From: Streptomyces longwoodensis
Lineage (GTDB): Bacteria > Actinomycetota > Actinomycetes > Streptomycetales > Streptomycetaceae
Assembly (NCBI RefSeq): GCF_001514125.1
Contig: NZ_KQ948566.1
Span: forward strand, 82,802 to 146,801
Reading direction: 5' to 3'
DNA: 64,000 nt
A program made the translations under genes and the position numbers. The notes below the pieces were generated by a model. The model did not search any database and was not told where the DNA came from. It saw only the letters and a list, made by a program, of their open reading frames with translations. This document shows positions 47,505 through 50,797 of the stretch, in pieces; within the stretch, counting starts at the first letter, position 1, and every line of letters begins with the position of its first letter.

Positions 47505-48005
47505 CTACAGGAACTCGCTTCGGTAGGTCGAGGCCAACTCGGCCGCGCGGCGGCGGCGTTCGGCGAGTTCCTCGTCCGTCAGCCGCGGCGGCGGCGCGTC
47601 CTTGCCCTCGACGACGTCGCCGATGCGCAGGAAGTACTCGTCCTGGCCGGCGGGGGTGCACATGCAGAGCATGCGGGCCGGTGCGCCGGAGACGTTGCGG
47701 AAGTGGTGCGGGGCGTTGGCCGGGACGTTGATCGTGGACCCGGCCCGCACGGTGTGCTTCTGCCCGCGGAAGGTGAACTCGATCTCGCCCTCGAGGAGGG
47801 TGAACATCTCCTCGAAGTCGTGCCGGTGCGGCGGCGGGCCACCACCGTCGGGCACGCGCATGTCGATCAGGCAGTACCGGCCGTCGGTCTGCTCGCCGGT
47901 GACCAGCAGGGCGTACGTGTTGCCCACGAGGGAGACGTACGTCGTGCCGGGGTCGTCCGGGTCGGCCACGGTCAGCGATCGGGACAGGTCGTCGTCGGGA
48001 AGCAT
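47505..48005 (-). CDS. Cupin-domain protein
   Basis: A 166-residue single cupin. Motif 1 is PPPHRHDFEEMFTLLEGEIEF with metal-binding His, His and Glu; motif 2 is VPANAPHHFRNVSGAPARML. All metal ligands of a functional cupin are present. These proteins range from dioxygenases to sugar-binding sensors. It is divergent from an AraC-type regulator at 48147 and upstream of the STAND-like ATPase on the same strand. Confidence 0.87.
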   Translation of the reverse strand: MLPDDDLSRSLTVADPDDPGTTYVSLVGNTYALLVTGEQTDGRYCLIDMRVPDGGGPPPHRHDFEEMFTLLEGEIEFTFRGQKHTVRAGSTINVPANAPHHFRNVSGAPARMLCMCTPAGQDEYFLRIGDVVEGKDAPPPRLTDEELAERRRRAAELASTYRSEFL

Positions 48006-48146
48006 CGCGGTCCTCGTCTCACGGGCAGGGGGGAAGATCGTTCACGTCGAAGTACGCCAAGACTAGGAACGGCCGTACGGAGAATGAAGGTACGTTGGCG
48101 ACACCAGACGGGACACCGGCGACACGTTCGCCGGCGCGGAGGACAC

Positions 48147-49130
48147 ATGAGCAGCAGACCGCGCTTCCTCGGTCCGAGCGACAGGGTGGGCACGTTCACC
48201 GTCGACGCCGGCTCCACGGGCACCGGCCGGGAGGCGTGGGAGTCGTTCACCGACACCTGGACCGACCGCATGGGGGAGCTGTACCCGCTGCCGGAGTTCA
48301 GCGCCTCCACGGTCGAGGGCTTCCGGGGGACGATGCGCTCGGTGGCCCTGGAGGACACCGCGGTCAACGAGTTCCGGGGTTCCTCACCCCTGAGCACCCG
48401 GGCCGTCGGTACGCACGAGCACGACCACGTCAGGCTGTACGTCGGGCTGCGCGGCGCGTTGACCCTGGAGGACCCGCACGACCAGGGCGGCGACGCCCAC
48501 GTGCCGGCCGGCACCTACTTCATGCACCACGTCGTGCGGGAGAACCACTTCCACTCCACGCCCGAGAGCGCCAACCGCATCTTCATCTTCCCGGGTGACG
48601 CCCTGCGCTCCCTGGTCTCCGGCAAACCCCGTGCGGGGCAGGCCACTTCGCCCGCGGCGCAGGTCCTCATGGCGCATGCCGGCATGGTCCAGCGGACCGT
48701 GGGCCACCTCGACCCGGCGGCGGCGCACGCGTCCCGCAACGCCCTGATCGAACTCGCCAAGGGACTGGTCCTCGACCACTTCGACGACCGCGAGCCCGTC
48801 TTCACCCCGGCACTGGCCCAGGCGGCCAGGGACCTGGCCGACACCCGTCTCGCCGACGCCGACCTCTCCCCGGCCACCGTCGCCGCGTCCCTGCACGTCG
48901 CCCCGCGCACCCTGCAGCGGGCCTTCGCGCGCCTGGAGGAGCCGTTCAGCGCGTACATACGCCGCCGGCGCCTGGAGGAGGCGGCCACGGCACTCACCGC
49001 TCCGACGTCACGCCTCACCGTCTCCGAGGCCGCCGCGCGCTGGCACTTCACCGACAGCAGCCACTTCATCCGCGCGTTCAGGAAGCAGTACGGGGTGACA
49101 CCGGCGGCCTTCGCACGTGGACGGGGCTGA
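48147..49130 (+). CDS. AraC-family regulator
   Basis: A 327-residue protein. The N-terminal AraC-binding-like domain (residues 30-190) has STRAVGTHEHDHVRLYVGLR and HFHSTPESANRIFIFPG; the C-terminal pair of HTHs has LSPATVAASLHVAPRTLQRAF and ARWHFTDSSHFIRAFRKQYG, followed by VTPAAFARG. ATG 48147 is preceded by GGAGGACAC. It is divergent from the cupin gene, which is the obvious target. Confidence 0.9.
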   Translation: MSSRPRFLGPSDRVGTFTVDAGSTGTGREAWESFTDTWTDRMGELYPLPEFSASTVEGFRGTMRSVALEDTAVNEFRGSSPLSTRAVGTHEHDHVRLYVGLRGALTLEDPHDQGGDAHVPAGTYFMHHVVRENHFHSTPESANRIFIFPGDALRSLVSGKPRAGQATSPAAQVLMAHAGMVQRTVGHLDPAAAHASRNALIELAKGLVLDHFDDREPVFTPALAQAARDLADTRLADADLSPATVAASLHVAPRTLQRAFARLEEPFSAYIRRRRLEEAATALTAPTSRLTVSEAAARWHFTDSSHFIRAFRKQYGVTPAAFARGRG

Positions 49131-49180: not shown

Positions 49181-49684
49181 CTACGCCCCACCCTTGCGGC
49201 GGCGCGACGCGGCCGAGCGGGGCGGTGTCGCGCGCATGTGGTCGCGCACCGGCGCCAGCAGGCCGGCCAGGGACCTGACCTCGTCGTGCGAAAGCGGTGC
49301 GAACAGCAGGCCGCTGACCACCTCGACGTGCCCGGGCAGCACCTTCGCGAGCAGCTCACGCCCGGCACCGGTGAGGGTGACGGTGACGCTCCGCTCGTCG
49401 TCCGGTGAGGGCGCGCGGACGACCAGGCCCTCCTTCTCGAGCAGACCCACCTGGTACGTCAGCCCGCTGCGGCTGTAGACCACCCCGTCGGCCAGGTCGG
49501 TCATGCGGTGGCTGCCGGTCGGCGAGTCACCGAGGCGGGCCAGCAGCTGGAACTGCACGTAGCTGAGGTCGCCGCTCTCGCGCAGCTGCTGCTCGACGGC
49601 GTGGCGGAGCAGGCTGGTCACCTCGATGAGGTCGAAGTAGGCCCCGAGCTGCACGGGGTCGAGGGACGACGTCGCATCAGACAT
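49181..49684 (-). CDS. MarR-family repressor
   Basis: A 167-residue winged-helix protein. LSYVQFQLLARLGDSPTGSH and DLADGVVYSRSGLTYQVGLL form the HTH, and VVRAPSPDDERSVTVTLTG is the wing with the conserved DxRS. Three copies of the palindrome CTTCGAATTCGAAG lie between it and the quinone reductase gene, so control of both is nearly certain. Members respond to phenolics, peroxides or related stress. Confidence 0.93.
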   Translation of the reverse strand: MSDATSSLDPVQLGAYFDLIEVTSLLRHAVEQQLRESGDLSYVQFQLLARLGDSPTGSHRMTDLADGVVYSRSGLTYQVGLLEKEGLVVRAPSPDDERSVTVTLTGAGRELLAKVLPGHVEVVSGLLFAPLSHDEVRSLAGLLAPVRDHMRATPPRSAASRRRKGGA

Positions 49685-49699
49685 GGCCGGATTCTACTG

Positions 49700-49713
49700 C
49701 TTCGAATTCGAAG
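49700..49713. promoter_or_regulatory. MarR operator CTTCGAATTCGAAG, copy 1
   Basis: A perfect 14-bp palindrome 16 bp upstream of the MarR start. Confidence 0.85.
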
Positions 49714-49746
49714 AGATGCAGTTCCGCAGTGACCCACCACCCGACT

Positions 49747-49764
49747 TGCTTCGAATTCGAAGCA
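49747..49764. promoter_or_regulatory. MarR operator, copy 2 (18-bp perfect palindrome)
   Basis: TGCTTCGAATTCGAAGCA is palindromic over 18 bp and lies midway between the divergent genes, 49 bp from copy 1 and 38 bp from copy 3 (core to core). Confidence 0.87.
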
Positions 49765-49786
49765 GAGGTAGTCTCCTCATCAGTTG

Positions 49787-49800
49787 CTTCGAATTCGAAG
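49787..49800. promoter_or_regulatory. MarR operator CTTCGAATTCGAAG, copy 3
   Basis: A third perfect copy, 53 bp before the quinone reductase start, probably overlapping its promoter. Confidence 0.85.
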
Positions 49801-49852: not shown

Positions 49853-50797
49853 ATGAAGGCAGTGCGTTTCCACGAGTACGGCGACCCCGGCGTCCTGGTG
49901 CACGAGGACGTGGAGCAGCCCGTTCCCGGCCCCGGTCAGGTCCGCGTCCGCGTCGCGGCGACCTCGTTCAACCCCGTCGACGGCAACATCCGCGCCGGCT
50001 TCATGCAGGGCCCCATCCCGGTGGTGCTGCCCCACACCCCCGGCATCGACGTCGCCGGCACGGTCGACGCGCTCGGCGAGGGCGTCGAGGGCCTCGCGGT
50101 CGGCGACGACGTCGTCGGCTTCCTGCCGATGGACGGCCCCGGGGCCGCAGCCGAGTACGCCCTCGCACCGGCCGAGGTGCTGACCCCGGCGCCCAAGAGC
50201 GTCCCCCTGGCCGACGCGGCCGCGCTGCCCCTGGTGGGTCTGACCGCGTACCAGGCCCTGTTCGAGCACGGCGGGCTGGTGGCCGGACAGCGGGTGCTGG
50301 TCAACGGTGCCGGCGGCGCGGTGGGCGGTTACGCCGTGCAGCTGGCCAAGAACGCCGGTGCCCACGTCATCGCCACGGCCGGCCCGCGCAGCGGCGACGC
50401 GGTGCGGTCCGCCGGCGCCGACGAGGTCGTCGACCACACCACCACCGACCTGGCCGCGGCGGTGACCGAGCCGGTCGACCTCGCGCTCAACCTCGCCCCC
50501 GTCGACCCGGCCGAACTGGCCGCGCTGCTCACCCTGATCAAGCCCGGCGGGGTCCTCGTGAACACCACGGTGTGGATGCCCGCCCCCAGCGACGAGGAGC
50601 GCGGGGTGCGCGGCGTCGACCTGTTCGTCCGGAGCGACGCCGGCCTGCTGGCCGGGCTCGTGGCGTCGGTCGACCGCGGCGAGCTGCGCGTCGACGTCGC
50701 CGAGCGGGTGCCGCTGGCCGAGCTGCCCGCACTGCACGCACGGGCCGCCGAGGGCGGCGTGCACGGCAAGGTCGTCGTCGTCCCGTCCGCGGCCTGA
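49853..50797 (+). CDS. NADPH-dependent quinone reductase-like oxidoreductase
   Basis: A 314-residue zinc-free medium-chain reductase. MKAVRFHEYGDPGVLVHEDV and SFNPVDGNIRAG are characteristic of the QOR group; the nucleotide-binding motif is VLVNGAGGAVGGYAVQLAK. The zinc-ligand cysteines of alcohol dehydrogenases are absent. It probably reduces quinones or enones and so detoxifies the signals sensed by the divergent MarR repressor. GAAGGTGA precedes the ATG. Confidence 0.92.
   Translation: MKAVRFHEYGDPGVLVHEDVEQPVPGPGQVRVRVAATSFNPVDGNIRAGFMQGPIPVVLPHTPGIDVAGTVDALGEGVEGLAVGDDVVGFLPMDGPGAAAEYALAPAEVLTPAPKSVPLADAAALPLVGLTAYQALFEHGGLVAGQRVLVNGAGGAVGGYAVQLAKNAGAHVIATAGPRSGDAVRSAGADEVVDHTTTDLAAAVTEPVDLALNLAPVDPAELAALLTLIKPGGVLVNTTVWMPAPSDEERGVRGVDLFVRSDAGLLAGLVASVDRGELRVDVAERVPLAELPALHARAAEGGVHGKVVVVPSAA

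What the first reader, a model, noticed from the sequence alone, without database searches (positions are those of the whole stretch)
49700..49800. Triple exact MarR palindrome
CTTCGAATTCGAAG occurs three times in 101 bp; the middle copy is an 18-bp palindrome. Three exact operators for one divergent promoter pair is unusual and suggests cooperative occupancy or graded response.
Basis: seen in the sequence. Interest (0 to 1): 0.6.

Follow-up and report, generated by a model that had tools for sequence, protein, structure and literature searches.

The report
MarR repressor with one-plus-two operators
A soil bacterium's small repressor gene carries one binding site on its own promoter and a fixed-spacing pair on the promoter of the enzyme it probably controls; this is an ordinary local control circuit, but an unusually well conserved one.

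Summary
In detail: CTTCGAATTCGAAG occurs exactly three times in window 49700-49800 and nowhere else in the 8.36-Mb genome. Relatives show what it is. The sites are most likely operators of the adjacent cysteine-free MarR protein (49181-49684, -). They are not a cooperative trio but a 1+2 layout. O1 sits beside the -10 of marR's own, apparently leaderless, promoter. O2 and O3 are a tandem pair bracketing the -10 of the divergent quinone-oxidoreductase-like gene (49853-50797, +). The pair was found at 76 of 77 orthologue starts examined, spaced 38 bp in 56 of 76 (34-39 overall); O2 ends 6 bp before the -10 in 73 of 76. In 41 of 68 linked loci O1 lies 100 bp or more from the pair, and in eight genomes a pair stands before an oxidoreductase outside the 3 kb fetched around marR. 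In the genus sample, oxidoreductases of 75% identity or more have the pair in 9 of 9 genomes with the MarR and 0 of 8 without. Three clustered sites thus reflect a short intergenic region. This is a new member of the known MarR autorepressor kind. Binding, ligand and cooperativity are untested.

The parts
49181..49684 (-). marR: MarR-family regulator, 167 aa, no cysteine; predicted repressor
   Evidence: Pfam MarR_2 44.4 bits (cut-off 27) and MarR 35.5 (24.6); closest solved chains 3zpl (SCO3205) and 3zmd (AbsC); 0 Cys
49700..49713 (-). O1: operator on marR's own promoter, starts 29 nt upstream of its ATG
   Evidence: exact copy; O1 found at 77 of 81 marR starts, 59 of 77 at exactly 29 nt
49691..49696 (-). 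predicted marR -10 (TAGAAT), 3 bp from O1 and 6 bp before the ATG, so probably a leaderless mRNA
   Evidence: O1-to-(-10) distance 3 bp in 65 of 77; TAGACT in 50 of 77; column conservation over 59 rows
49746..49751 (+). predicted -35 (TTGCTT) of the oxidoreductase promoter, overlapped by O2
   Evidence: TTGCTT in 73 of 76 promoters with the pair
49749..49762 (+). O2: operator over the -35 and spacer of the oxidoreductase promoter
   Evidence: exact copy; ends 6 bp before the -10 in 73 of 76
49769..49774 (+). predicted -10 (TAGTCT) of the oxidoreductase promoter, 17 bp after TTGCTT
   Evidence: TANNNT found in all 76 pairs
49787..49800 (+). O3: operator just downstream of the predicted start of transcription (about +5 to +18, inferred)
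   Evidence: exact copy; 38 bp after O2 in 56 of 76
49853..50797 (+). MDR/quinone-oxidoreductase-like enzyme, 314 aa; predicted target gene
   Evidence: Pfam ADH_N, ADH_zinc_N, ADH_zinc_N_2 above cut-off; the three solved relatives at E 1e-30 or better are named quinone oxidoreductases or a homologue, 5a3j E 1.2e-39

Best explanation
The three palindromes are operators of the adjacent MarR protein, which represses its own gene and the divergent oxidoreductase. A dimer on O1 covers the region just upstream of the marR -10 and shuts marR off. A dimer on O2 covers the -35 and spacer of the oxidoreductase promoter and blocks RNA polymerase. A dimer on O3 sits just past the start point and adds a second block. 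A small-molecule ligand, perhaps an aromatic or quinone-like compound, would release all three. Shown by comparison: association of the sites with this MarR, their positions relative to predicted promoters, and absence of the pair at oxidoreductases in genomes without the MarR. Inferred: binding, repression, transcription starts, ligand class. Unknown: whether O2 and O3 are filled cooperatively.
For: The exact 14-mer is confined to this place in the genome. In 79 of 80 named relatives (L005-L084) at least one site with up to 2 mismatches was found. O1 was found at 77 of 81 marR starts (55 exact, 15 with 1 and 7 with 2 mismatches) and the pair at 76 of 77 oxidoreductase starts (pair rule: up to 4 mismatches per site, up to 5 in total; 58 of 76 have at most 1 per site and 28 of 76 are exact twice). 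The pair stays with the oxidoreductase when it lies about 1 kb from marR, downstream of marR, or elsewhere in the genome. In the genus sample, oxidoreductases at 75% or more have the pair in 9 of 9 genomes with a close MarR and 0 of 8 without (one-sided Fisher 4e-5, relatedness ignored). Among 52 pairs aligned at 38 bp, mean pairwise identity is 0.95 and 0.91 in O2 and O3, 0.65 between them and 0.50 in the flanks. SCO3205, the closest solved relative, binds one operator per divergent promoter (PMC3737563: abstract, passages, sections 15 and 24 read).
Against: No binding, expression or ligand data exist here. Four of 81 marR genes (L042, L067, L071, L075) lack O1, so autoregulation is not universal. 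Three of the eight no-MarR oxidoreductases keep one fairly good site (one exact, two with 2 mismatches). G292, which has the MarR, has a second oxidoreductase copy (79%) without sites, so per copy the count is 9 of 10; its upstream DNA resembles that of L160 and L161, so part of the 0 of 8 may be a separate paralogue line rather than operator loss. G177 has the MarR but no oxidoreductase match at E 1e-80 (its marR contig is 6 kb). The marR -35 is poorly conserved.
Confidence: 0.87

Rival explanations
1. Cooperative trio: dimers on O1, O2 and O3 interact (side by side or by looping) to give a graded or switch-like response across both promoters.
For: Three perfect sites within 101 bp. In 16 of 68 linked loci (window included) O1 is 20-86 bp from the pair, and in 8 of 68 one site was counted as both O1 and a pair member, so the promoters can share occupancy.
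Against: O1 is 100 bp to 2.4 kb from the pair in 41 of 68 linked loci and outside the fetched region in eight further genomes. O2-O3 spacing varies 34-39 bp and is about 3.6 turns; window O1-O2 is 49 bp, 4.67 turns.
Confidence: 0.1
2. The palindromes are bound by another regulator (for example the AraC-type protein whose gene ends at 49130) and MarR proximity is incidental.
For: An AraC-family gene lies next to marR (HTH_18 73 bits).
Against: O1 is present upstream of marR in 77 of 81 cases across many genera, and oxidoreductases in genomes without the MarR lack the pair. Conservation of the AraC neighbour was not examined.
Confidence: 0.04
3. The MarR activates the oxidoreductase gene rather than repressing it.
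For: Some MarR-family proteins act positively (SlyA/RovA class, recalled; not tested here).
Against: O2 overlaps the predicted -35 and spacer and O3 lies downstream of the -10: repressor positions, not usual activator positions.
Confidence: 0.04
4. Chance or a mobile repeat.
For: Two exact copies in genus genomes without the MarR (L115, L117) have no marR or oxidoreductase homologue in the 3 kb around them.
Against: Expected 0.002-0.010 exact copies per genome; near-constant promoter geometry in relatives of many genera.
Confidence: 0.01

Closest known systems
SCO3205 of Streptomyces coelicolor (PDB 3ZPL; PMC3737563: abstract, passages, sections 15 and 24 read)
   Same: Closest solved relative (E 4.9e-18). 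MarR with two operators in a divergent intergenic region, one near each gene, consistent with repression of both; nanomolar affinity, 24-bp footprints. Of its three base-contacting residues (Arg72, Ser73, His77) the Arg and Ser align with Arg and Ser here (alignment, read by eye).
   Different: Its consensus is TTnAAnnnTCAA, one operator per promoter, and the divergent gene is class III extradiol dioxygenase-like. Here the palindrome is perfect and the target has two operators. The contacting His aligns with Tyr.
E. coli MarR at marO, sites I and II (PMC3920692, passages read)
   Same: Two dimers at one promoter: site I between -35 and -10, site II near the translation start; site I is the important one. 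O2 and O3 sit in comparable places.
   Different: There marR is the first gene of the controlled operon (recalled); here marR itself has a separate single operator and the target is divergent.
HucR of Deinococcus radiodurans (PMC5487221, passages read)
   Same: Divergent marR-type gene and enzyme gene under one ligand-released repressor.
   Different: One site in the intergenic region; here three, although some relatives have a two-site form with a shared site.
AesR of Corynebacterium glutamicum (PMC13413800, passages read)
   Same: Divergent operons, two side-by-side palindromes with unequal affinity.
   Different: Neighbouring palindromes within one 44-bp footprint; different motif and targets.

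Membership tests
MarR family | MarR winged-helix domain above the curated cut-off | tested here: met
   PF12802 44.4 bits against 27; PF01047 35.5 against 24.6
MarR family | homodimer that binds palindromic DNA | not testable with these tools
   palindrome linked to the gene in 77 of 81 cases; no binding assay
MarR autorepressor with divergent target | operators overlapping both core promoters | tested here: met
   O1 3 bp from marR -10; O2 over -35/spacer of the target; promoters are predicted, not mapped
thiol-based MarR sensors (OhrR/QsrR type) | reactive cysteine (recalled criterion; a passage says some MarR proteins sense through cysteines) | tested here: not met
   0 cysteines in the protein
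HpaR (TIGR02337) | equivalog cut-off 121.2 bits | tested here: not met
   28.4 bits
SCO3205 subgroup | operator consensus TTnAAnnnTCAA and dioxygenase-like divergent target | tested here: not met
   operator is CTTCGAATTCGAAG (compared by eye) and target is an MDR oxidoreductase
PIG3-type quinone oxidoreductase (TIGR02824) | subfamily cut-off 296.8 bits | tested here: not met
   144.3 bits; it is MDR superfamily and quinone-oxidoreductase-like only

The most novel reading that the evidence does not exclude
The O2-O3 pair, held at about 3.6 turns with the -10 between the two sites, is a two-dimer clamp that silences the promoter cooperatively from opposite faces of the DNA (for example through the bent or unwound -10), while the single O1 gives marR a softer response; the 1+2 layout would be a conserved way to give enzyme and regulator different response curves from one identical site.
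Probability: 0.15. Interest if true: 0.5.

Novelty: new member of a known kind. Interest (0 to 1): 0.3.

Why it matters
It defines, by comparison alone, a likely complete local circuit (regulator, operator, both promoters, target) shared by many actinobacterial genera; the operator string was not found in the held paper library. Identical sites in single and paired form, with natural spacing variants and genomes that lack the regulator, make it a clean system to test whether paired operators act cooperatively. A perfect-palindrome operator confined to one locus could also be useful for biosensors.

Tried and rejected
Rejected: chance; thiol-redox sensing through the MarR, as it has no cysteine; a wider exact-site regulon in this genome, as there are no further exact copies and only one place with 1 mismatch (contig C6), with no marR or oxidoreductase homologue in the 3 kb around it, and 11 with 2 mismatches whose surroundings were not examined; activation, from site positions. 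Literature: the operator string was not found with MarR (TTCGAATTCGAA) or alone (CTTCGAATTCGAAG). A search for MarR with three binding sites and divergent genes listed one paper on another regulator; some searches listed general and related cases. Leaderless mRNA in Streptomyces rests on a search listing with abstract starts and general knowledge. The script chose outer pairs in L010, L034, L063 and L070 and found none in L005 and L080; one search replaced it. No structure prediction or fold search was run; the sequence match to SCO3205 seemed enough. The 11 places with 2 mismatches, the AraC neighbour's conservation and a MarR tree were left undone.

Full report
What is there. Window 49700-49800 holds three exact copies of the 14-bp palindrome CTTCGAATTCGAAG (49700, 49749, 49787) between two divergent genes. 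On the minus strand, 49181-49684 encodes a 167-aa MarR-family protein without cysteine. On the plus strand, 49853-50797 encodes a 314-aa medium-chain dehydrogenase/quinone-oxidoreductase-like enzyme, also without cysteine. The genome (8.36 Mb, 32 contigs) has these three exact copies and no other, one place with 1 mismatch and 11 with 2. Markov models expect 0.002-0.010 exact copies per genome. The genus is taken as Streptomyces because the closest named loci are Streptomyces and contigs of the genus sample match named Streptomyces contigs in length; the genome itself is unnamed.

Relatives. Some are near relatives (L082 and L083 carry the same strain number). A site with up to 2 mismatches was found in 79 of 80; L067 has none. 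In the genus sample, 10 of 295 genomes have a MarR at 87% identity or more and all 10 have an exact palindrome. Of the other 285, three have one: one in front of an oxidoreductase orthologue (L125) and two with neither gene near.

The layout is 1+2. With a uniform rule, O1 was found upstream of 77 of 81 marR genes (80 loci plus the window), starting exactly 29 nt before the start in 59 of 77, and followed by a TANNNT -10 (TAGACT in 50) 3 bp later in 65 of 77. In the window this -10 ends 6 bp before the ATG, which suggests a leaderless mRNA (inference). The pair was found at 76 of 77 oxidoreductase starts: 67 of 67 named loci with a readable start, the window, and 8 of 9 further loci reached by the palindrome. 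Spacing is 38 bp in 56 of 76, 37 in 11, and 34-39 overall. O2 ends 6 bp before a TANNNT -10 in 73 of 76, and its first bases complete a TTGCTT -35 in 73 of 76, 17 bp from the -10 in the window. O3 begins 9-13 bp after the -10. So O2 is locked to the promoter and O3 has slack. The pair rule was loose (up to 4 mismatches per site, up to 5 in total): 58 of 76 have at most 1 per site and 28 of 76 are exact twice. Listing all sites with up to 4 mismatches gave no such pair at 20 oxidoreductase homologues (50-80% identity) from genomes without a close MarR, nor at the second copy in G292.

The groups move apart. In the 68 linked cases (67 loci plus the window) O1 is 500 bp or more from the pair in 35, 100-499 bp in 6, 20-86 bp in 16 (the window, 49 bp, among them), the same site in 8, and missing in 3. 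The pair follows the oxidoreductase, not marR. In L029, L042, L054, L057, L061, L071 and L075 it lies downstream of marR. Where about 1 kb separates them, open frames lie between; Pfam finds a cupin in L013, L041 and L058 and an FMN reductase in L013 and L024, but a different helix-turn-helix regulator in L038 (six proteins from five loci tested). Thirteen named loci had no readable oxidoreductase start. Twelve of them (not L067), in 11 genomes, were searched for the palindrome with up to 1 mismatch. In eight genomes a pair stands before an oxidoreductase homologue further away or on another contig (L130, L132, L133, L134, L149-L152; 59-83% identity); in G296 it is only 4 kb from marR's site, in G299 190 kb. 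L073, whose genome G301 gave L152, also has an oxidoreductase cut by the contig end. In G303 and G304 no pair was seen; marR sits near contig ends there. G305 has the usual linked copy plus a second, 62% identical MarR beside a cupin-like frame with two sites 35 bp apart. Because these were found through the palindrome, they show where sites are, not a blind rate.

Natural control. In the same genus sample, 36 of 295 genomes have an oxidoreductase at E 1e-80 or better; 30 of the 40 listed matches received loci, and one more was fetched. Among those at 75% identity or more, the pair is present in 9 of 9 genomes with the MarR and in 0 of 8 without (Fisher 4e-5, not corrected for relatedness). 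Counted per copy it is 9 of 10, because G292 has a second copy without sites. G177, the tenth genome with the MarR, gave no oxidoreductase match at this cut-off. Against this: G246 keeps one exact site, G165 and G193 one with 2 mismatches, and L160, L161 and the second G292 copy have nearly the same upstream DNA, so they may be one separate paralogue line. G199 (MarR 59%, enzyme 60%) keeps the 1+2 layout with a changed centre (CTTCGAYRTCGAAG), so the outer CTTCGA/TCGAAG halves appear to matter most.

Mechanism. Most likely one MarR dimer per palindrome: O1 shuts marR, O2 blocks RNA polymerase at the oxidoreductase promoter, O3 adds a block past the start. Ligand release is inferred from the family. 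The ligand is unknown; the enzyme class and the FMN-reductase and cupin genes in some relatives suggest aromatic or quinone-like compounds. In six loci with short intergenic regions (L069, L074, L076, L077, L082, L083; the last two one strain number) there are only two sites, and the outer one also lies next to the marR -10. Three sites in the window thus mean that marR and target do not share a site.

Compared with what is known. The closest solved relative is SCO3205 (3ZPL), with one operator per divergent promoter, 24-bp footprints and nanomolar affinity (PMC3737563). Two sites on one promoter, the first between -35 and -10, are known for E. coli marO (PMC3920692). HucR uses one site (PMC5487221). 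The present system combines these known elements. It is a new member of a known kind; neither its operator string nor a paper on this protein came up in the searches made of the held library.

Noticed in passing
L013 1623-2793, L024 2049-2624, L041 2336-2908, L058 2358-3002: Some relatives carry a cupin gene (L013, L041, L058) and/or an NADPH-dependent FMN-reductase gene (L013, L024) between marR and the oxidoreductase; in the window only 168 bp lie between the two genes, so none fits there.
   Followed up: partly
L184 1165-2252: A second, 62% identical MarR beside a divergent cupin-like frame and a hydrolase-like frame (read by eye) has its own palindrome pair at 35 bp in the genome of L045/L019 (S. 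diastatochromogenes).
   Followed up: partly
L130 1338-1484: A marR remnant (matches only to residues 1-25 and 135-163) with an exact O1 stands beside an operator pair and oxidoreductase, while a full MarR lies on another contig of that genome (L052).
   Followed up: partly
L042, L067, L071, L075 upstream of marR: marR keeps a TAGACT- or TAGGGT-like -10 but has no O1, so autoregulation seems absent there.
   Followed up: no
genus sample; named loci: The MarR is patchy (10 of 295 genus genomes at 87% or more) yet 78-89% identical in distant actinobacteria such as Solirubrobacter, Actinoallomurus and Saccharothrix, which suggests horizontal transfer; no tree was built.
   Followed up: no
window 47505-49130: A cupin gene (-) and an AraC-family regulator gene (+) follow marR; the AraC gene ends 50 bp from the marR stop and converges on it.
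   Followed up: no
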